A DNA stretch of 64,000 bases, taken from contig NC_049982.1 of the NCBI RefSeq assembly GCF_000003815.2, forward strand, positions 28,208,329-28,272,328, given 5' to 3'. This stretch comes from Branchiostoma floridae (lineage: Eukaryota > Chordata > Leptocardii > Amphioxiformes > Branchiostomatidae). Positions 2,675-57,090 of the stretch are shown here, piece after piece. The position numbers and the translations under genes were made by a program. How positions within the stretch are numbered: the stretch's first letter is position 1; each line of letters begins with the position of its first letter. The notes beneath the pieces were generated by a model. That model was not told where the DNA came from. It made no database searches and saw only the letters and a program-made list of their open reading frames with translations.

Positions 2675-2794
2675 CTACTCTTGGCGATCATAGATTCTTG
2701 CCACGACTACGTCCGCGCACTGATCAACGTTACCTAGGAAAGGTCCCTGACGGCGAAAACAACTGTAGTGACCGTAGTCCTGATATTGTTCGCG
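2675..2794 (-). CDS. Doubtful terminal exon of the ARF-like gene
   Basis: Downstream of the WDVGG exon on the minus strand, a pyrimidine-rich tract and GAAACAG acceptor open a phase-0 frame of 39 codons that ends in TAG. It contains GHYSCFRRQG and VARIYDRQE. These weakly recall the ARF segment 'RHYFQNTQG...VDS...EARQE' in the right order and phase, but identity is low. It sits in the core between the minisatellite arms. Chance similarity is quite possible. Confidence 0.2.
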   Translation of the reverse strand, partial: REQYQDYGHYSCFRRQGPFLGNVDQCADVVVARIYDRQE

Positions 2795-2852
2795 CTGTTT
2801 CGCGGAAGCAGAAGAAGATGGTGGAATTATTTTTACGACACAACAGAATGAC

Positions 2853-3690
2853 ATCACCCAACTTTGCACAACTTTGCACAACTTCGTACACAAGCCACCC
2901 TACCCTGCCTACTGTACGAAGTTAGATGACATCACCCAACTTTACACAACTTCGGACAACTTCGTACACATGCCACCCTACCCTGCCTACTGTACGAAGT
3001 TAGATGACATCACCCAACTTTGCACAACTTTGCACAACTTCGTACACAAGCCACCCTACCCTGCCTACTGTACGAAATTAGATGACATCACCCAACTTTG
3101 CACAAATTTGCACAACTTCGTACACAAGCCACCCTACCCTGCCTACTGTACGAAATTAGATGACATCACCCAACTTTGCACAACTTTGCACAACTTCGTA
3201 CACAAGCCACCCTACCCTGCCTACTGTACGAAGTTAGATGACATCACCCAACTTTGCACAACTTCGGACAACTTCGTACACATGCCACCCTACCCTGCCT
3301 ACTGTACGAAGTTAGATGACATCACCCAACTTTGCACAACTTCGTACACATGCCACCCTACCCTGCCTACTGTACGAAGTTAGATGACATCACCCAGCTT
3401 TGCACAACTTCGTACACTTGCCACCCTACCCTGCCTACTGTACGAAGTTAGATGACGTCACGTAACTTTGCACAACTTCGGGCAACTTCGTACACTTGCC
3501 ACCCTACCCTGCCTATTGTACGAGGTTAGATGGCGTCACGTAACTTTGCACAACTTCGGGCAACTTCGTACACTTGCCACCCTACCCTGCCTATTGTACG
3601 AAGTTAGATGACGTCACGTAACTTTGCACAACTTCGGGCAACTTCGTACACATGCCACCCTACCCTGCCTACTGTACGAAGTTAGATTAC
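2853..3690. repeat. Right minisatellite arm, 78/68-bp units
   Basis: Eleven copies of a unit containing GCCACCCTACCCTGCCTA start at 2893, 2972, 3050, 3128, 3206, 3284, 3352, 3420, 3498, 3576 and 3654. The period is 78 bp, with two 68-bp units that lack one 10-bp 'CAACTTTGCA' subunit. Because 78 is divisible by three, a 169-codon frame at 2874-3383 stays open. It is a repeat artefact and not a gene. Confidence 0.9.
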
Positions 3691-18600: not shown

Positions 18601-21600
18601 TACTTTTTTGTGATTTCAGCTTTAACCAGAGATGACATTGTTGGAAACGGAATCGGCTTCTTTTCGGGAGCTTTTGAGACCGTCTCAATCACCATGTCCT
18701 TCGCGTTGTACCACCTGGCGCTCGATCAGGAGGTCCAGGACAGAGCCAGGCAGGAGATCAGAGAAGTTGCCGGAAGCGAAGTACGTTTCTTATGTTTTAA
18801 TGTTTTCATACTTTTTCGTGTTCTTCATTGACAATTCTCAAAAGGTATACCGATCTGATCTAATCAAGGTTTTTTTTAAATGACCTGGTTGTCTTACTGT
18901 CTGATCACCAGTTAATGTCCAAGAAATTATCCTAAATGTTACTATTAGTAAATAACAAAACATCTGGTCAAATAATTTAGGATTACTTTGTGGTAGAAAG
19001 GGTATTGGTATATGTTCCGATGCGTTAACGGCAACTAATACACCGTGTGACGGTTGACACTAAGACACCGTAATACGCTGTAATACACCTTATAACTTTA
19101 CTACTACTACTACAGTAACTACTAATACACCGTATGGCGGTTGACACGAAGACACCGTAATACGGTGTATTGCAGCGTATGACTTTACTACTACTACTAC
19201 TACTACTACTTTTACTACTACTATCACGACTACTTTGTGGTTTACATGGTGAGGTTGACTACTATTACTACTGCTAGTAATATATACTACTACAGAACTA
19301 CTGATAAATACTATTATTATCATTATTACTACTAGTACTACTATGTTATGGTTTACAGGGTGAGGTTGGCTATGAGGCGGTCCAGAAGATGTCTTACCTC
19401 GAGATGTGCATCATGGAGACCCTTCGTCTCTACCCTCTTGTATCCAAGTATGTTTTATCAATATACATTTGTAGCTGTGGTGTACTAAATATCATTAGCT
19501 ACGAGGTGTGACTGGAGTAGTGTACTACATATTACATAGATACGAGGGGTGACAAATAATTTTGCAGCCTCACCCAGAAATAAGAAACACTTTTCTGAAT
19601 ATCTATAACTACCAAAAATCAAACCATTGCCATCATTACTCTTCAAAACACAATATTTTCCTTAAGAGTTTATGTGAGTCCCGCAACTAAAATTTGATCG
19701 TCATCTTACTGAAAACTTGGACTATGTAATTGTTATAACTTAGTTACCTGTACGAACTGCATACGTGTAGTTATACCTTTATCTCACGTGAAGAGCTTAT
19801 ACAAAGTTTATATATAAATGCTGTACAGCTGACATTGGAGGTTCCGTTACGTACTTTGTACAAAATACAGTTGGCACAAAAATGCTGAGTTCGCACGTCA
19901 AAGTTTGTTGTAGGTAACGGTACATACGGAATATTTGTACCATTATGTGTTCACTGTTATATGTGTCCTTTTAGCATCCAGAGGGTTGCTAATGAAGAGG
20001 CCAGGCTGAAGTGGATCACCGTCCCCAAGGGTATGCGTGTAATGGTCCCCGCCATCGCCATTCACTATGATCCTGCTCGCTGGAACGAACCGAGGAAGTT
20101 CAACCCCGAAAGGTTTGTTTGTATAAGCCTTTCACGCTAGTTACCACGCACGCGCGGGTGAAAGCTTACTCTGGGTAATATGTTAAAGTTGAAAGCCCCC
20201 ACAAAATCAACATTCCGCCATTTTGCAGGCCCCATTACGTTTCGGACATTGTGACACAAATAGAAACAATGGTAGAGACGAGACTGTTTACGTTTGAAGG
20301 CCTTCAACTTTGACATAAAAATTTATTACCCAAAGTTCCTTTCACTCGCGCGTGCGTGGTAACTAGTGTGAAAAGGCTTATTGCATTATAACCTTGACTG
20401 AACCGCCTCGTGGCAAAACACACTAGGTTTGTACTGAAGGGTACAAGTTGAATATTCTGACAGAATTATTTGATCCAATCACCTTTTCTATAAGTGTGTT
20501 GGGTTCTTTTATGTGCTTGAGATGTGGCTCTCCTTAGATATGGGACATCCATTTAACGTAATGTTTGACTGAAAAAGTATTTTTCAAGCCTCAGTTTTGC
20601 CTCAGTGTGAGAAAAACATTGTTAACTAAATTTGATAGGACACTTTTTCACACTTGTGCATTACAATATTGCATTTAAGTTGTGTGTTGACTTTTTGGCT
20701 TAGGTATATATAGTTTGTCCCAGTGGACTGCCGGATATTGCGGAGGTACCCCTCGACAATGAGGACGCAGCGTCTACATGTATTTGCTGCCGGGTACCGG
20801 GTTAATATTATGTCGGAAAAAACATCCAAGGGCCTGGCCGTGCCCCAAAATAGCTTGGGAGTCAAGCTACGTAGGAATCAAGCCCGAAAGTGCAGAAAAC
20901 AGGCTGTGAACTACCGAGGGAACCCTTTTTTTCATTTAGGACTGTAGCATTAGTTGACGTTGAACTTGATGTGTGATCTTTAGCATTATCTGCTTAAAGT
21001 ACATAGATGTCAGTATAACTCTTTTTTATTGTCGAAGGTTCACGAAGGAAGAGAGGGAGAAGCGGAACCCGATGGATTGGCTGCCCTTCGGGGTGGGGCC
21101 GCGGAACTGCATCGGGATGAGGCTGGCTCTGTTGGAGCTGAAGGTTGGACTGGCCAGGGCGCTGATGAAGTACCGCTTTGTGACTGGACCCGAGACTGTG
21201 AGTCACTTAAGCTACATTTTGCAACGAGGGCGCGCGGGCGGACACATGTACAGTACACACTGCCAAAAATGCTTTTTTCTTGTTTATCTTATTTTGCTTC
21301 CTCACAGAAAATTTATCCTCCAGGAAGAAAATTATTCTGTTCCCAAGAAATCTTGGGAAATGTGCATGTCCATGGGGCAAGCAAATTTTTGCTTGTTAAG
21401 TTTTTGAGACAATTTGAGATTTTGTTTTCTTGTATTTGCAAAAATGCTTTTTTCTCACAGGAAATTTATCTTCCAGGAAGAAAAATCTTGTACTTCGTAA
21501 GAGTTGAATCTGCTTAGAAAAATCTGGTTTGCTTATATCTCTAGAATTTTTTTTGCAGTTTCTCGTTTTGCTTGAAGTTTATTCTGCATTTTCTTCCTGC

Positions 21601-25201: not shown

Positions 25202-28200
25202 TTAAGTAAATCTTCCGGTCATTTTGATGAAATTGAAAACATAGTCAAAGATGTTACAATTTATCGAGTGTGGAAGGAAAGGGCTGCCCATAGTGAGAAG
25301 GGTGCATAAAGTATTGTCAGATGAGTTAAGGGGGTCAGGCGAGAGTAATTCTTCTAGGTTTAAACGGGATATGGAGTGCAACATATGAATCCTTTCGCTA
25401 TTGTATAGTTCGCAGTGCAACAAGTAGTGCTCAGTTGTCTCGTTTGAATTCCCACATTCACAAGTAGGGCTAGTTATACAATGGTGTTTGAATAGGTGTG
25501 AGTTAAGCTGGCTGAAGTCGAGTCTGAGTCTAGTCAAGTGAACTGCAGGGCGTCCGTGGCCATGGGAGTAGTGGGTGTGTCTGGGCGGGCTGTCAAAGAA
25601 AGACTCTAGTTCTCTTTTAAAAATACTAATAGATGGTGATGTTTTGGCGGACAAAGGAAGTTGACTCCAGGAGAAAACTGCGGCAGGTAAGAAGGATCTT
25701 TTGTACTTTTCGGTTCTTAGGGCAATAGGGAGGTAGTTCTGGTCATCTCGAAGGCCATAAGGGGTGGAATCACGGATAAGTGGAGGTACCAGTTCATGGA
25801 GATAATTTGGTGCAGAGCCACTGGCCATTTTATAGAAGTGAATAAGTACATGCTTTTCCCGTCTGGTGGCAAGTGTGTCCCAACCGACCTCCGTTAAGAT
25901 GCGGCTGTGATTCGTCCCCCTTAGTGCACCCGTGCAGACCTTAGCCGCGGACACCTGTACTGATTCGAGTGAGTCAGAGTCTTTCTAAAGAATACCGCAC
26001 CAGGCGACGTTGGCATACTCAATCAAGGGACGTATCATGGCTTTGTACAGAGTCTCGAGTGTTTTCCGTGGGACAAAGCAAGAAATTCTTTTCAGTAGAT
26101 TTATGCGTTTCATTGCTTTCGTCACCAGGATTGACACGTGAAGTGACCATGATAGGTCTCTAGTGAGATGTAGGCCAAGGTGTTTGTGGGATTCGACTTC
26201 AGTGAGCTGAACACCTTTAAAGTATAAGGGGGGATGTCGAACTTTGTTTTTCTTCAGGGAGAACGTCATCAATACTGTTTTTTGGGGATTGAATGTAACA
26301 AGCCACTGAGCAGCCCATTCCGAAACTGAGGTGAGATCACGGTTTAACCTGTCCGCTGAGGCAACAGGGTCAGTAATTATCTCTAGTAGTGCAGTATCAT
26401 CCGCAAAAAGGCGGGAGTCTGTTAATAAGTCATCAACAATGTCATTTATAAATACAAGAAAAAGTAAGGGGCCAAGGAGGGATCCCTGAGGAACACCTGC
26501 ATTGATAGGTAGCCATTCAGAGCACACTCCATTGATGACGACTCTTTGCCTTCGGTTATTTAAGTACGACTCTATCCATGCCAACAGAGACCCAGTGACT
26601 CCAAGTTGTCGTAGTTTAAAGAGTAAGCCGGTGTGCCAAACCTTATCAAAGGCTTTGGAAATATCAAGGAAGACTGCGCGGGTTTCAAGTCCTTGGTCAA
26701 GTGCTTGATGAATTTTGTGAACAAGGTATGTTAAGGAGTTGACGGTAGAATCTCCAAGGGCGAACCCGGCGTTACGATCAGTAAGAAGCTTGTTTTGGTG
26801 GAAGTACGAGGAAAGTGAACTGTGAACTACTCGTTCCAAAACTTTGGATACACAACATAGGAGGGATATGGGTCTGTAGTTTTCCTTTGTCTGCTTGTCG
26901 CCTTTCTTATGTACAGGCACTACGTTCGAGCATTTCCAAATGTCCGGGAAGCACCCGTGCTGTATGGAGATATTGAATAATTTTGATAGTGGATTAGCCA
27001 ATGATGGGGCGACGTTTTTTAAAAGCCTGTTACCAAGACCATCAGGACCTGTGGCCTTGTTAACATCAAGGTTACACAAAATTTCATAAACTTCAGAGGG
27101 GGAGCAGATAATGCAGTCGATAACCGTGTCAGTTCTAGTAGTAAACAAGGGAAGAGAGGCGCCTGTTGTGTCAAGATTTGATTGAGAAGCGAAGTAACAA
27201 TTAAAGACATTGGCCTTGGTCTTGTCGTCCGTAATAGTAAATTCATCTTCGACTAAGGGTGGTAATGTTCGATCTATCTTACCCATGAATATTTCTTTAG
27301 AGACGGACCACCACTTTTTTGGGTTCGAGGATGGATTTGCCAGGTCGAGACAAAGGCCGAGTCTGTGGTTGTGCTTCGCCTTTCTGATTAACTTTGTACA
27401 ACTATTACGGATATGCTTGAACGTGTTGTATATCTCTGGCCTGTTAGTTTTCTTGTATTTACGGTACATTCGTCTCTTCTTCCTTAGCATTTGTCTGATT
27501 TCACACGTCATCCAAGGTTGGTCTCTTGGTCGGATTGTGACCTGTTTGCTGGATACAAACCGCGCGATCGTTGTAGAAAGGGTTGTCATGAATGTTTCGG
27601 TTAAGGCGTTTATGTCCGGAATGTTCTCCGAGACAATGGAACCCCAATCTATAAGTAAGAGCTCAGAGTTCAATCCTTCGTAATCTGCCTTATGAAACTC
27701 GTATACAGTACGTTTGTAGGTTTTAACACGGGGGATTTTAAGATACATTTTGCCATATACAAGTGAGTGGTCACAATTTGACAAAGGCGGGTTTGTACCA
27801 CACTCCGTAAAGAGACTTGGTGAATCTGTAATGAGGACATCGAGCAAGGATGACGATGTGTCGGTAATGCGAGTGGGCTCTGAAATCAGCTGGTCGAAGT
27901 TGTTTTCTGATGTAAACATTTCAATCGTGGAAGCGGCATTGTCAGAATTTGCATTCAAATCACCAAGCAAGACAATAGTAGTTTTGTCAGATGGGCCGCT
28001 GTCAATAATTACGTCAACTGATTGTTGCAGGTGCTCAAAGAATGTGGAGCGTTCCTCCGCACTCTGGCCGGGCGGTCTATAACAACAACAAACAAATAGT
28101 TTCATACCGATATCCACCTCACACCAGATTGCTTCAGACGTATCACTTTCTAGATCGCTCCTCCTTTTACATGGTACAGAGTTGGATATATACAGTGCAA

Positions 28201-28432
28201 CTCCGCCACCATGGCGGTTGCGATCTCGACGCATGGGGACTTGATAAGAGGGGAGGTACATATCTACGTCTGGGATGGTGGAGTCACACCATGTCTCGGA
28301 GAGAGCAATGATATCGTACCCCTCCTCTAGAGCAATGGTCTCAAGTTCGTGGAGTTTGGTAAAATCATGTGCGGGAAGACTCCTCACGTTTGCGTGACAG
28401 AGAGAAAAGTGTTTCTGATTATTTACAGGCAT
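25202..28432 (-). pseudogene. LINE ORF2: endonuclease-reverse transcriptase with one internal stop
   Basis: The first 815 residues (28432-25985) carry an exonuclease-endonuclease-phosphatase domain (HANVRSL, SETWCD, GGGVALYIS, LGDLNAN, CDHSLVYG). The reverse transcriptase follows (ENYRPISLLCCVSKVLE, GVPQGSLLGPLLF, catalytic FADD). TAG at 25987-25985 interrupts it. The same frame then continues without a shift for 260 codons to 25202, with DSDSLESVQVSAAKVCTGA and a terminal CECGN..ETTEHYLLHC zinc-knuckle-like segment. One nonsense change thus separates this copy from an open reading frame of about 1076 codons. Read-through or a sequencing error cannot be excluded. Confidence 0.88.
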
Positions 28433-28856
28433 TAATTATGCTGAGTCTTGTACTGAGTTTGATGCTACTTGTCTCTCTGTCATGCATTCGTGAGTAACAG
28501 TAACTAAGTATTGATTGATTGGCGCGCCAGCCGGACAATACAAAAACACAATCAAAATAACAGAAGCAATAAGAACATAACTGGGCAATAATGACTACAA
28601 AAAGAAAAGAAGGGGCGAACATGCCCTTCAAATAACTCAGAAACATCATAACGTTAAATAAAACATCAAACATATGATCAACATAAACAGAATGTCACTG
28701 CGTTGAGCTTCATAGAGTGCAAGGATAAGCTGAGCCCCTTACAGGTGATCTGATTGCCTTTAATCATGTTCGACGGATCGGACGACATGAAAAGCAATAT
28801 GGTGAAAGTAGATCATATGTGAATAGCTTGGTGAATAAACATAATAACTTCAAGTT

Positions 28857-29621
28857 TTACTTGTTAGCCATCAGTTCGAGCTGGCGGATGTCGGTGGGGC
28901 CGGTGATTCGGTGTATCTCTGGATCGCCGCCTTCGCAGTTGACCTTGACGAAAATCTTGCCATCTTGGGTCCATGCGGAGCTGACACTGGGCAGGCGTTT
29001 TGCAGAATTATACAGTTCAAGGTTGCGTTTGGTCAAGTTTTCTCTGATGATGTAGGATTTGCCCGTGCTGTTTGTTTTCCCCTTTAGTCGTTTCTTGGCC
29101 TTGTAGACTTCCTGACGCTTTGCATAGTTGGTGAACTTGACGATGACTGTGTGAGCTCCGTCACGAGGCCGGCCAACACGGTGTGCTATGTCGATGTCTG
29201 ATCGTTGGACGCTGACGTCGAGATGTTTCCTGGTGAAGTCCATGAATGTTGATGCGCAGTCCTCTGATTTCTTCTCTTCAGGTGATGGGGGAGGGGGGAT
29301 TCCGAAGACGAGCAGACAATGCTTCCGACTATATTGTTCGTTTCTATCGGCATGACTTTCGGCTTCGGCTAGGCGTACCTTTAGTGTAGTCAGTTCTTCG
29401 TCTTTCTCGACAAGTGTGTGCTTCAGCTCGTCAACCTCAGCTTGGAATGACGACTTAAACTGGTCCAGTTCGTGTCTGACTTCAGCCTTTATGGCCGCTA
29501 AAATGTCTTGCTTCACAGCGCCCAGGAACTCTTCTTTCAACTTGTCAAAACTGAGTCTCAGCTGAGAGTCAACAAGGTCTGAGACTCTCTTAACTTCCCT
29601 AGTGGACGGTGTGGTCGTCAT
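28857..29621 (-). CDS. LINE ORF1 protein (coiled coil + RRM-like)
   Basis: 254 residues, intact. The N-terminal two fifths are a predicted coiled coil (FDKLKEEFLGAVKQD to LRLAEAESHADRNEQYSRK). They are followed by a VFGIPPPPSPEEKKSED segment and a C-terminal RNA-binding-like region (IDIAHRVGRPRDGAHTVIVK, YIIRENLTKRNLELY). This architecture is that of L1-type/Transposase_22-like ORF1 proteins, which trimerise and bind element RNA. 'AHRVGR' followed by 'R.VIV.F' is their most conserved feature. Start: first ATG after the 5' UTR. Confidence 0.85.
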   Translation of the reverse strand: MTTTPSTREVKRVSDLVDSQLRLSFDKLKEEFLGAVKQDILAAIKAEVRHELDQFKSSFQAEVDELKHTLVEKDEELTTLKVRLAEAESHADRNEQYSRKHCLLVFGIPPPPSPEEKKSEDCASTFMDFTRKHLDVSVQRSDIDIAHRVGRPRDGAHTVIVKFTNYAKRQEVYKAKKRLKGKTNSTGKSYIIRENLTKRNLELYNSAKRLPSVSSAWTQDGKIFVKVNCEGGDPEIHRITGPTDIRQLELMANK

Positions 29622-29725
29622 GGTGGTGAAATGGAGGCTCAGAATGAGGAAATTTGTTAAATATCCGCAGTGTAGCAGGGAGCCCTTAGACTATACGTGT
29701 GTCTACGGGCGCCATCTTGGTTACT

Positions 29726-40763: not shown

Positions 40764-41194
40764 NNNNNNNNNNNNNNNNNNNNNNNNNNNNNNNNNNNNN
40801 NNNNNNNNNNNNNNNNNNNNNNNNNNNNNNNNNNNNNNNNNNNNNNNNNNNNNNNNNNNNNNNNNNNNNNNNNNNNNNNNNNNNNNNNNNNNNNNNNNNN
40901 NNNNNNNNNNNNNNNNNNNNNNNNNNNNNNNNNNNNNNNNNNNNNNNNNNNNNNNNNNNNNNNNNNNNNNNNNNNNNNNNNNNNNNNNNNNNNNNNNNNN
41001 NNNNNNNNNNNNNNNNNNNNNNNNNNNNNNNNNNNNNNNNNNNNNNNNNNNNNNNNNNNNNNNNNNNNNNNNNNNNNNNNNNNNNNNNNNNNNNNNNNNN
41101 NNNNNNNNNNNNNNNNNNNNNNNNNNNNNNNNNNNNNNNNNNNNNNNNNNNNNNNNNNNNNNNNNNNNNNNNNNNNNNNNNNNNNNNNNNNNNN
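40764..41194. other. Assembly gap (431 N)
   Basis: A run of 431 N. Frames reported across it are meaningless. Confidence 0.99.
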
Positions 41195-48368: not shown

Positions 48369-48844
48369 ATGTCATTCCGACACATCGCGACATTTGCCGT
48401 GCTCCTTGCAGTTGTCATCGCAGCTGAAGGTGAGTTGTTGTTGCTGATTTGTTTCTCGATAGAACAGTAGTTTCGAAGACATGTTTCCATGTGTATCGTT
48501 TCAGCATAGCTTTAGATCTATCCAGTTAGGTAACTCTGTGCATATACAATGCTTTAAATGAGGGGCAGTAACTGGTGTTCACGTATGTAATTGGTTTTAA
48601 ATCTACAGTGGAGTTTTTTTCTTCGTTTCTGTTGTAAATCAACACATTTCCGGCTTGTTGTTCTAAACCCAAAGGCCTGCTGCTGGTAGCTTGGGGGCGT
48701 GGGTAACTTTAATGTGTCATGGGTAGCATGTCGGGCTAAAGTAAGCAACACTTTAAGTGTTACTTCTACAAAATGAATTGCAATGTCTCCTATCTCTTGT
48801 GAAATTTGAAGAAGATTTTCAGGTAAAAGTAGTAGCAGCGCTAG

Positions 48845-48912
<68 letters not shown>

Positions 48913-49523
48913 TACAAAAGTCAGTGATTTATGAAGTTAAAGGCCCTAAATGCAGCAGTATCCAGGACTTTATGACCAGTATGACCAGTGTGTTTTTCTG
49001 TGCAACATAAACTGTACAACATTGTGCAGTATAACTAACAATATTTTACCTGTTTACTTCAGGACGCCCCGGGCCCTATACCGATGAATTCAAAACTGAG
49101 CTCAGGCTTGGTCCAAACCCTGATGGCCTGAAGACGCTCGACAAGATCATCGAGACAAAACAAGTCTTCCCCACGAAGTATGTGGTTAGAACATTATCTT
49201 ATGTCAAGTACTGAAAGAAAATGTTGCGTTGATATTCCTCTGTAGGAATATCATTATTTGCATTTTTAAAAGAGGATTGTTTTATGGTCAATTTTATTCT
49301 CAATACATTGTGGTAAGTACCATTGGTGCAGCCACAAAAATAATGTGTTTAACCACTTTTGAAAGTGGTATATATTGGTCTTGTTAATAACACGACTTGG
49401 GTTTCTTGTGTCTCCAGGACTGAAGCCATCAAACACACAGCAAAGTTGGATGTAGACCAGAAGACTAAGGAGAGTGACATCAACGTTTCGACCTTCGCCA
49501 AGCATGACAAAATTTCTACGTAG
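48369..49523 (+). CDS. Small secreted protein, 93 residues
   Basis: Exons 48369-48429, 49063-49177 and 49418-49523 join in phase (1, 2) and end at TAG. The first codes for a signal peptide (MSFRHIATFAVLLAVVIAAEG). The mature part of about 73 residues is hydrophilic, rich in Lys, Asp and Thr, has no Cys, and contains RPGPYTDEFKTELRLG and DGLKTLDKIIETK. I do not recognise the family. All introns are GT-AG with good acceptors (TTACTTCAG, GTGTCTCCAG). The signal-peptide exon is also phase-compatible with the exons at 49680 and 50156, so two C-termini may share it. Confidence 0.6.
48847..48900. repeat. (AT)n microsatellite
   Basis: About 27 AT dinucleotides in intron 1 of the 48369 gene. Confidence 0.95.
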
Positions 49524-49679
49524 ACACAGGACGTAATATAAACATAATGCTGTTTAACTATCCCACATTTTTTTCTATTTACTTCATGATGCTATGCTGC
49601 ATAGCCCTCCTGCATTCTTTTATTTAATTCAATTCATCACAGAACTACACTAATGTGATTGCCTTCTGTTGTTCCCCAG

Positions 49680-50235
49680 ATGAAGTCCTAACCCGCAAAT
49701 ACGACCAGCTGTTCCACCCTGAGCAGCTCATCACTGGTAAGGAGGATGCCGCCAACAACTTCGCCCGTGACCACTACACCATCGGCAAGGAGATCGTGGA
49801 TCTGGTCCTGGACCGCATCCGTAAGCTGGCTGATCAGATAACCGGTATGTAGGGCTTTCTCATCTTCCACTCACTTTTTTCAATTCACAACAAAACAAGG
49901 CTCATTGAAATTAAGCCGCTGCAGTATGTGGGGTTTCACTAACTGGGCTTGGATGATAGATATGGTTAACATTTGACTTAAATAGTTGTAGGTTGTACCC
50001 ATCAAGGAAAGCAAATAACGAGAAAACATGTCCCATAAGGATGCAGTTTTAGATAAGACGGGGTGAACTGAGCCAGTTTGAAATCTAACAAAGACATTGA
50101 GTTAAAGTTAAAGATAACAATGATGAATAATATGTTGTTTTGCATTTCTTTACAGATCTCGACGGCAAGACCGCACAAAGCAAAACCTTAATGTTGGATG
50201 ACGTTGGTGATGTCAACCAGTACCGGAACCTGTAG
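49680..50235 (+). CDS. Exons with an alpha-tubulin-derived segment plus a short unique C-terminus
   Basis: Exon 49680-49844 (phase 1 at both ends) codes for 55 residues matching alpha-tubulin residues 76-130 at about 85% against the consensus as I recall it. Examples are [37 protein letters not shown]. It begins at the G|AT junction used by conserved tubulin introns. Exon 50156-50235 adds [26 protein letters not shown] and TAG and is not tubulin. Together with the signal-peptide exon 48369-48429 (phase 1) they would make a 101-residue protein. The segment lacks the tubulin GTP-binding loop (GGGTGSG) and cannot act as tubulin. Alternative view: a tubulin pseudogene fragment not spliced into anything. 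Confidence 0.55.
49845..49873 (+). pseudogene. Decayed continuation of the tubulin fragment
   Basis: Directly after the exon donor, the same frame still reads GM-stop-GFLIFHS, matching tubulin GLQGFLVFHS with the Gln codon turned into TAG (49850-49852). The new donor (G|GTATGT) lies within former coding sequence. Homology then stops. Confidence 0.6.
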
Positions 50236-50812
50236 GCATCATATGGCGCCCGCTGGCTCGCCTCGTCCGGAGCCCTGGTCAGTCTGACATTTTAAAAAAA
50301 TCATCCGTCAATCATCCCTGTACTGTAACTCTGGCTGCTAGAAAAGTTATTCGATCAATAATGAATGGCCAATGTTGTTGCACTACTTCCAGCCTTTTTT
50401 AATTTTTTCATCATGGCTAATGATATCCACTTCAGAAAATGTAGTTGAACTGTTCCCATCATTACACTGTGTAAGTATTTCTTGGAAGTGAAGGGGAATT
50501 TAGAAATGATGATGATCTTGCTGTAGGTGGCCCTGGTGAACGTTCAAACGAACTCACGTTTCCTTGTCTATAGCCTATTGAAGCATACTTAACATCTGTT
50601 AATTCTATTTCGCAGTGGTACATGTCACAATTTGTAACTGTGAAAGTAGCTTTTGTACTGTATAAGGGACTTGAATTATTCTAAGAGGAGTCGTAATTAA
50701 AGACATCATAATAATTTCCTATAATGTTTGAAGTATGTGCATCAGGAGAGTTTTGTACCTGATATCCTTTTACTGTGGCTGTACTGACTCTTCTGTACTA
50801 ATTTGCCTACAG

Positions 50813-52591
50813 GTGTCTGACTTGCTGGGCCGTGACTTCTCTGCTGCTGACTTGGCCACGGGTGGTTTTGATGCAATGAATACTGCACTGCCACTGGAGC
50901 TCGCCACTACATTAGTGTTGTTGTCAACTCTGCAGGTGTGTTTATTCTTGGACTTGGGTTCTTTGCAAATCTGTCAGCTTGTTGTTCAAGCATGATGTGT
51001 ACTATTAGCAGTACAATTAAGTACAGCATTCCAACATTGATGCTCGCTTTCTTTTGTTACTTCCCTTTCATGGGTACAAGGAACTAGAGCCCGCCATCGC
51101 TGCTGAGGTTATGGGCCAGTTGTCAAAACAGTACACGACTCCGGATCTCGCCCCTGAGATATTACAGACACAGCTTGTAAGTCCCCTTGCTATCTTTTTA
51201 CTTCAGGCCAACAGTCGTTTTTATCCGTTGCTTGTTTGTATACGACTAAGTCTTCTCAGACAGAGACAAACAATTCAATCCAGCTTAGCATGTGAGGCAA
51301 CCTGCCTTACTTCATAAGAAACTTTTAAACTTGCCTTATGTAGGCATAGGACTTGAACTTTGGTCTTTGTTATGTATGTGGTTTGACATTTGTGCTGCAA
51401 ATTCAAAAATGTGATCTCTGGTTCTGTGCCAAACTGTCAGCTTCTTGTCTAGGTATTAGCACTACAATTGGGTACAGCATTCCAACACTAATGCTTACTT
51501 TCCTTTGTTTCCTCGCTTTCAGAGGTACAAGGAACTACTGGACATGCACATCAGCGCTATCCTGGGTATGGACAAGTTATCAGAAAAGGACATCAAGTTG
51601 GCTGTGGATAGCGCCATAGAGAATGAGGTCCATCTGGAAAGCATCAAGAACGCAGAGGCGTTTCAAATCGGTTAGTACTATTTAGCTTTAACTATTCAAG
51701 CAATCATAATCAAATCTCAAAAATACCCTTTTCACTGTCCAAAGTTTGTATCTTATGACAGGAGGCTGTTAATTAGCCTTTACGTGGGTGTAAGTTTTAT
51801 ACTTGAACGTTTGTCTTCCTCTGATATTCATAACTTCTTAGTGAAGCTTAAGACACTCTTGCAAATTACCTTGGCAGCGAGGATACCGATAATGGAAGAC
51901 AAGTTCTACAAACTCAGCCGCGAGGCCAAGCACGCCGTCAGCGAGGGCACCAAGGCCGTCAAAAGAGGTATAGTTAACCGCGACCCTTTTCAAGGCCACC
52001 CACATCCCCACAAAATAGCTGTAACAATCACCCTTTTTAGTCAAACAACCACCGACCTGCTATCGATCGTACGTGCCTAAAGCCCAACAACAGTCCCTAG
52101 CAGAGCAAGGCTGTGCAACGTAACGCACACCAACAAAAATCAAAGACATCAAGTGTCTTCTGATATAATAGAAGTAAAACTTTCCTTCAACTACCCACAG
52201 GATTACAAATAATAAAATCTCAACAATAACTTTTCTCTCATAATCTGAAGTTTGTAACCGATGATTGCTTGTGACATTGTAGTTAAATCAATGGTTTTGA
52301 TGGTACTGATAAATGAATACAGACCTTGGATAAGTAAACGAATTCATGTTCATTTGCAGCAACTACAAAAGTCGTATCCTGCATATGGAACTATCAGCTT
52401 TAGATCTAGCAAAGTCATCAGTGAAGCTCAATGAATGTACAAATCATGCTTTTAGGCATCTTTAGCTTTGGCAAGGAAAAGGAAAAAAGGAGTATCTGTT
52501 ACGGATGATTAGTCTGGGAATTAATTGTTGTTTACTTTGAATCTTTGTAACTGACGGATGTTTTTCTCTTTTTTTCCCAGCTGAGGAGTAG
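50813..52591 (+). CDS. Unknown helical protein, 3' five exons
   Basis: Exons 50813-50935, 51081-51176, 51523-51670, 51842-51967 and 52581-52591 join in frame (phases 0, 0, 1, 1) to 167 codons ending in TAG. Content is mostly amphipathic helix with no Cys: LLGRDFSAADLATGGFDAMN, YKELLDMHISAILGMDKL, KLSREAKHAVSEGTKAVKR. No family is recognised. No upstream exon in the window ends in phase 0, so either a 5' exon was missed or it starts near ATG 50735 by a different promoter. The second exon's expected acceptor is CAT instead of CAG; AG at 51079-51080 is used in this model. AATAAA at 52895-52900 is the likely poly(A) signal. Confidence 0.5.
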
Positions 52592-56990: not shown

Positions 56991-57090
56991 NNNNNNNNNN
57001 NNNNNNNNNNNNNNNNNNNNNNNNNNNNNNNNNNNNNNNNNNNNNNNNNNNNNNNNNNNNNNNNNNNNNNNNNNNNNNNNNNNNNNNNNN
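56991..57090. other. Assembly gap (100 N)
   Basis: A run of 100 N, flanked by a hairpin (CGAGGAGGCATGACTCTGAT ... AGGGTCATACCTCCTCG, 57092-57165). Confidence 0.99.

What the first reader, a model, noticed from the sequence alone, without database searches (positions are those of the whole stretch)
49680..49873. Alpha-tubulin exon fragment apparently recruited into an unrelated small gene
The sequence shows 55 uninterrupted codons matching alpha-tubulin residues 76-130. They start exactly at the phase-1 junction of a conserved tubulin intron, so this was copied as DNA rather than from mRNA at that end. Tubulin homology continues 9 more codons into what is now intron, with a stop codon and more change. 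The donor G|GTATGT sits inside former tubulin sequence. Sharp loss of conservation beyond the donor is what exonisation plus selection would produce. The piece lacks the GTP-binding loop and could not be tubulin.
Basis: partly seen in the sequence, partly recalled or inferred. Interest (0 to 1): 0.8.

Follow-up and report, generated by a model that had tools for sequence, protein, structure and literature searches.

The report
Alpha-tubulin gene fragment near small gene
A 197-base piece of an alpha-tubulin gene that begins at an old intron boundary lies beside a small predicted gene; it looks like an ordinary partial gene copy, and whether it is ever used as an exon cannot be told from this sequence alone.

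Summary
Window 49679-49876 (+) matches alpha-tubulin residues 76-141 (82% identity, E 9e-31). It starts at the phase-1 intron junction published for sea-urchin alpha-tubulin, keeps an acceptor-like site and has TAG at codon 133. Copying as DNA is the likely route. Recruitment as an exon is possible, not shown. For it: the chimera 48369-48429 / 49680-49844 / 50156-50235 is in phase; piece 50156 looks mildly coding; the donor at 49845 was probably made by two substitutions (6% by chance). Against it: the signal-peptide-like exon has another complete continuation ending at 49523; a stronger donor lies inside the fragment; an open frame is expected in 49-75% of neutral simulations; and the claimed drop in conservation at the donor is not significant (12 of 165 against 4 of 33 bases, p 0.31). 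The window's own genome could not be searched (11 of 11 requests unanswered), so no parent gene, orthologue or dN/dS was obtained. Verdict: most likely a partial tubulin pseudogene, at best a candidate shuffled 1-1 exon.

The parts
49680..49876 (+). Alpha-tubulin gene fragment, codons 76 (phase 1) to 141
   Evidence: tblastn 81.8% identity, E 9e-31; PDB phmmer
49680..49844 (+). Proposed 1-1 exon: 55 open codons, residues 76-130
   Evidence: Reading frame and phases; splicing not shown
49657..49679 (+). Acceptor-like site, probably the 3' end of tubulin intron 2
   Evidence: 15 of 20 pyrimidines plus CAG, matched by 1.6% of 3481 AGs on the + strand of the window; intron position from PMC6539552
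49845..49850 (+). Proposed donor GTATGT inside former tubulin codons 131-133
   Evidence: Weight-matrix score 3.96, top 1.4% of 4129 GTs on the + strand (recalled matrix)
49737..49742 (+). Stronger internal donor-like site GTAAGG, also phase 1
   Evidence: Weight-matrix score 5.95, top 0.4% of the same 4129 GTs
49850..49852 (+). TAG at tubulin codon 133
48369..48429 (+). Signal-peptide-like first coding exon, ends in phase 1, donor GTGAGT
   Evidence: donor score 8.21; signal peptide judged by eye
49063..49177 (+). Predicted exon 2 of the 93-residue frame
   Evidence: acceptor CAG; donor GAA|GTATGT is weak, 0.92, top 6.3%
49418..49523 (+). Predicted exon 3 with stop TAG
50156..50235 (+). Possible terminal exon, 26 codons, phase-1 acceptor
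   Evidence: GC3 0.68, reached by 4 of 88 comparable acceptor-linked frames, itself included
49628..49654 (+). Left copy of an imperfect direct repeat around the fragment
   Evidence: 20 of 27 identical to 49879-49905; 81 of 2912 random places of the window score as high, so weak
49879..49905 (+). Right copy of the same imperfect direct repeat

Best explanation
A short piece of an alpha-tubulin gene was copied as DNA into this place: the 3' end of intron 2, then codons 76 to about 141. It has no start codon or GTP-binding G-loop of its own and has changed without tubulin constraint: a partial duplicated pseudogene lying between the exons of a small predicted secreted-protein gene and a possible downstream exon. 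Because it brought an acceptor along and holds donor-like sites that keep a 1-1 phase, it may sometimes be spliced in as a cassette, but nothing here shows that this happens or matters. Shown: homology, boundaries, stop codon, phases. Inferred: the DNA route, loss of constraint, lack of use.
For: One hit, to residues 76-141, and nothing else below E 0.61 in 64 kb. The start matches the published phase-1 intron after codon 75; the intron at codon 125, present in 4 of the 10 sea-urchin genes named in the passage, is absent here as in the other 6. Within codons 76-130 the fragment differs from the recalled human protein at 8 of 55 residues, whereas a protist tubulin (L001) differs from it at 4 of 55 (counted by eye from the sequences); 6 of the 8 (79, 81, 82, 84, 106, 129) also differ from L001 and L002. 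The minimum change rate is not different inside and beyond the donor (12 of 165 against 4 of 33 bases, p 0.31). No stop in 55 codons arises in 49-75% of neutral simulations. A complete alternative frame ends before the fragment and a stronger donor lies inside it.
Against: All proposed exon phases fit. Piece 50156 looks mildly coding (4 of 88) and needs an upstream exon that ends in phase 1. The only AATAAA/ATTAAA between 49401 and 51000 is at 50696, none soon after the stop at 49523, which fits a gene that ends with 50156 better than one that ends with exon 3. Exon 2's donor is weaker in the same matrix (0.92) than the fragment's (3.96). The donor at 49845 scores -0.61 in the reverted ancestor; a new or much improved donor as good arises in 6.0% of neutral simulations. 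No gap in 66 codons. The fragment's GC3 of 0.75 is the highest of 88 candidate frames, which fits a young copy or constraint.
Confidence: 0.7

Rival explanations
1. Exonised, selected cassette: the fragment is a real 1-1 exon of a small secreted protein of 101 residues.
For: Phases 1-1-1 and an open chimera; donor probably gained by two substitutions; mildly coding piece 50156 and a polyadenylation-like ATTAAA at 50696; shuffled lancelet exons are reported to favour 1-1 phases (PMC4284660 section 14, read), if this is a lancelet.
Against: No transcript evidence; the first exon has another complete continuation; stronger internal donor; no significant break in conservation at the donor; lancelet domain novelties have been ascribed to gene-prediction errors (PMC4967905, passages).
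Confidence: 0.15
2. Spliced but not selected: the cassette is included now and then as noise or in an isoform without a function.
For: A good acceptor and two donor-like sites.
Against: Only splice-site scores with a recalled matrix; no reads.
Confidence: 0.13
3. Assembly artefact: a misplaced tubulin piece.
For: The window holds three runs of N, so it is a draft assembly.
Against: The nearest runs of N lie at 40764-41194 and 56991-57090; the piece carries a stop and residues not seen in the tubulins that I compared (human, L001, L002), so it is not a stray stretch of an intact gene.
Confidence: 0.02

Closest known systems
Partial duplicated (non-processed) pseudogene
   Same: Part of a parent gene copied as DNA with an intron edge and splice site, lacking the rest of the gene, with a stop codon
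   Different: The frame is still open over 55 codons and happens to fit neighbouring phases; the parent gene was not found
Shuffled symmetric 1-1 exon (as reported for lancelets, PMC4284660)
   Same: A phase 1-1 unit beside a signal-peptide-like exon that ends in phase 1
   Different: Encodes part of a fold, not a domain; the donor is not a known tubulin exon end; use not shown
Alpha-tubulin gene
   Same: Residues 76-141, intron position after codon 75
   Different: No other tubulin exon found in the window, stop at codon 133, residues 142-148 (G-loop, recalled) missing

Membership tests
Alpha-tubulin | Sequence homology to alpha-tubulin | tested here: met
Alpha-tubulin | Complete GTPase fold with G-loop and C-terminal domain | tested here: not met
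   No other tubulin hit below E 0.61 in the window
Partial duplicated pseudogene | Copied as DNA: intron edge or splice site kept | tested here: met
   Starts at the published phase-1 junction after a good acceptor-like site; no intron DNA of the parent was available to compare
Partial duplicated pseudogene | Neutral evolution | tested here: inconclusive
   No break in the change rate at the donor; no parent or orthologue, so no dN/dS
Processed (retro) pseudogene | Copied from mRNA: introns absent, poly(A) at the end | tested here: not met
   Starts at an intron junction with an acceptor-like site and ends near codon 141 with no long A tract in 49870-49920, by eye
Shuffled 1-1 exon | Symmetric phase compatible with both neighbours | tested here: met
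Shuffled 1-1 exon | Spliced into a transcript | not testable with these tools
   No RNA data on hand
Shuffled 1-1 exon | Frame conserved among species | not tested
   Own-genome search unanswered 11 of 11 times; no other collection on hand is built of animal genomes

The most novel reading that the evidence does not exclude
A helical piece of alpha-tubulin (residues 76-130), with its intron acceptor kept and a donor newly made from tubulin codons 131-133, has become a 1-1 cassette exon of a secreted small protein, so that a fragment of a cytoskeletal GTPase serves outside the cell.
Probability: 0.12. Interest if true: 0.5.

Novelty: new member of a known kind. Interest (0 to 1): 0.22.

Why it matters
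If it is only a relic, it is an ordinary case of partial gene duplication. If it is spliced and selected, it would be a clean example of exonisation: acceptor inherited, donor made by two point changes, within a piece of a very constrained animal protein. It would also bear on the dispute over how much lancelet exon shuffling is real (PMC4284660 against PMC4967905), provided the window is from a lancelet.

Tried and rejected
Own-genome search for the parent tubulin and other copies: sent in the same form 11 times and never answered, so nothing is known of paralogues. Viral-contig scans with the fragment and with the 93-residue protein found no relatives. The genome-contig scan gave two intronless alpha-tubulins (L001, L002), probably protist contaminants in a bacterial bin; they served only as distant yardsticks. 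The 93-residue protein has no Pfam match listed up to E 10 (the tool's filters drop most above about 0.1) and no PDB match up to E 1. Self-comparison of the window found no second copy of the exons.

Target-site duplication: a 20-of-27 direct repeat flanks the piece. Shuffles reach its score in 17 of 2000 cases (8 of 2000 with the right flank cut to 40 bases), but 81 of 2912 random places of the real window do (2.8%); the exact nine-base core is reached in 89 of 2000 shuffles and 117 of 2912 places. The test was chosen after seeing the repeat, so it stays a weak hint. Clustering of changes at residues 79-84: 7.6% by permutation, not significant.

Rows not used because they were mis-set: the row for exon 3 was read in the wrong frame, and the acceptor rows for 48336, 49419 and 50814 were off by one base. 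The splice matrix is a recalled approximation for human-like sites, not trained on this species.

Full report
Observation. The 64-kb window was searched with a recalled human alpha-tubulin. One significant hit appears: residues 76-141 at 49679-49876 on the + strand, 81.8% identity, E 9e-31; the next hit has E 0.61. The 56-residue translation also matches PDB alpha-tubulins at residues 76-131, best E 6.4e-26 (141 distinct sequences at E up to 0.001, best 60 shown). The frame is open for codons 76-130. It continues as tubulin to about codon 141, with TAG at codon 133 (49850-49852), and similarity then stops. Exon base 1 is 49680, directly after TTCCCCAG. A preceding G is needed for codon 76, so the junction is phase 1.

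Origin. PMC6539552 section 2.2 (passage seen) states that in sea-urchin alpha-tubulin genes the second intron lies after codon 75 in phase 1, and that a third intron at codon 125 is present in some genes only (four of the ten named). The fragment begins exactly at the first position and lacks the second. The 23 bases before it hold 15 of 20 pyrimidines and CAG; 1.6% of the 3481 AGs on the + strand of the window do as well. A copy of mature mRNA would have no reason to start there, and no long A tract follows the end. DNA-level copying of an intron-exon edge is the natural reading, although the parent intron could not be compared.

The neighbourhood. Exon 48369-48429 encodes MSFRHIATFAVLLAVVIAAE, signal-peptide-like by eye, ending in phase 1 at a strong donor (score 8.21). 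In phase with it lie 49063-49177 and 49418-49523, which give a complete 93-residue frame with its own stop; its middle donor is weak (0.92). The protein has no Pfam match listed up to E 10 and no PDB match up to E 1. So would be 48429 joined straight to 50156. The last piece has GC3 0.68, reached by 4 of 88 phase-1 acceptor-linked frames of 20 codons or more on both strands, itself included. The only AATAAA or ATTAAA in 49401-51000 is at 50696. Both facts favour a real last exon at 50156 a little, and hence count against my reading a little; if instead exon 3 is the last exon, its 3' untranslated part might run over the fragment.

Is it an exon? The donor 49845 (CCG|GTATGT) scores 3.96, in the top 1.4% of 4129 GTs, but 49737 (CTG|GTAAGG), inside the fragment and also phase 1, scores 5.95, top 0.4% (recalled human-like frequencies). 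In a tubulin-like ancestor made by the fewest changes the 49845 site scores -0.61, so changes in codons 132 and 133 made the donor. With 22 random substitutions a new or much improved donor as good arises in 6.0% of 20,000 simulations, and any as good beyond the first 60 bases in 4.1%. This is suggestive, not significant.

Selection. Against the recalled human residues the minimum base changes are 12 of 165 in codons 76-130 and 4 of 33 in codons 131-141 (Fisher p 0.31). A first count by codon positions 1 and 2, entered by hand, gave 9 of 110 against 3 of 22, p 0.42. The claimed sharp loss of conservation at the donor is therefore not supported; the homology just ends near 49876. Neutral simulations with 12 to 25 substitutions leave all 55 codons free of stops in 49-75% of cases, so the open frame says little. 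In codons 76-130 the fragment differs from the human protein at 8 of 55 residues and from each of the two protist tubulins L001 and L002 at 8 of 55, while human and L001 differ at 4 (counted by eye). Six positions (79, 81, 82, 84, 106, 129) are shared by both lists. L001 and L002 differ from each other only at third positions over these 165 bases (0, 0, 10). That speaks against tubulin-type constraint since the copy; it does not exclude selection for something else. No parent or orthologue was obtained, so dN/dS could not be computed.

Insertion. A 27-base direct repeat (20 identical, first nine exact) lies at 49628-49654 and 49879-49905; the homology ends at 49876. Of 2912 random places of the window with the same geometry, 81 score as high. 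It may mark an insertion, but it is weak.

Literature. PMC4284660 (passages; section 14 read) reports very frequent exon shuffling in lancelets, with 40% of shuffled exons in 1-1 phase between two species. PMC4967905 (abstract and passages) ascribes lancelet domain novelties to gene-prediction errors. PMC12373286 (passages) treats lancelet presence-absence variation. The word tubulin is not in the held main text of any of these three. No title or abstract start in the listings (10 of 18 listed), 36, 37 and 48 describes this locus; most papers of subscription journals are not in that library.

Verdict. A real tubulin gene fragment, most likely a partial duplicated pseudogene; recruitment as an exon is possible (about 15% selected, 13% spliced without selection, my estimates) and cheaply testable with RNA-seq.

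Noticed in passing
25205-29690 (-): A LINE-like element: reverse-transcriptase- and endonuclease-like frames (25205-25984, 25988-28435) and an ORF1-like frame (28860-29690), named from recall of the motifs only.
   Followed up: no
51003-51086 and 51454-51537 (+): An 84-base stretch, apparently an intron end and exon start, occurs twice at 85% identity, suggesting tandem exon duplication in a possible downstream gene; its joined peptide has no Pfam match above the curated cut-off.
   Followed up: partly
L001 2039-3226 and L002 2776-4092: Two intronless alpha-tubulin genes, probably of a protist, sit in contigs of a bin labelled Verrucomicrobiaceae (JAIYDP010000231.1 and JAIYDP010000217.1), so that bin seems contaminated.
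   Followed up: partly
2784-3380 (+): An open frame that repeats a unit of about 26-28 residues (such as YCTKLDDITQLCTTLHNFVHKPPYPA), probably a DNA tandem array read through.
   Followed up: no
20970-21404 (+): A frame with a cytochrome P450 haem-binding-like motif, FGVGPRNCIGMRLA (motif recalled).
   Followed up: no
48847-48913: A long AT dinucleotide run between the first two predicted exons of the small gene.
   Followed up: no
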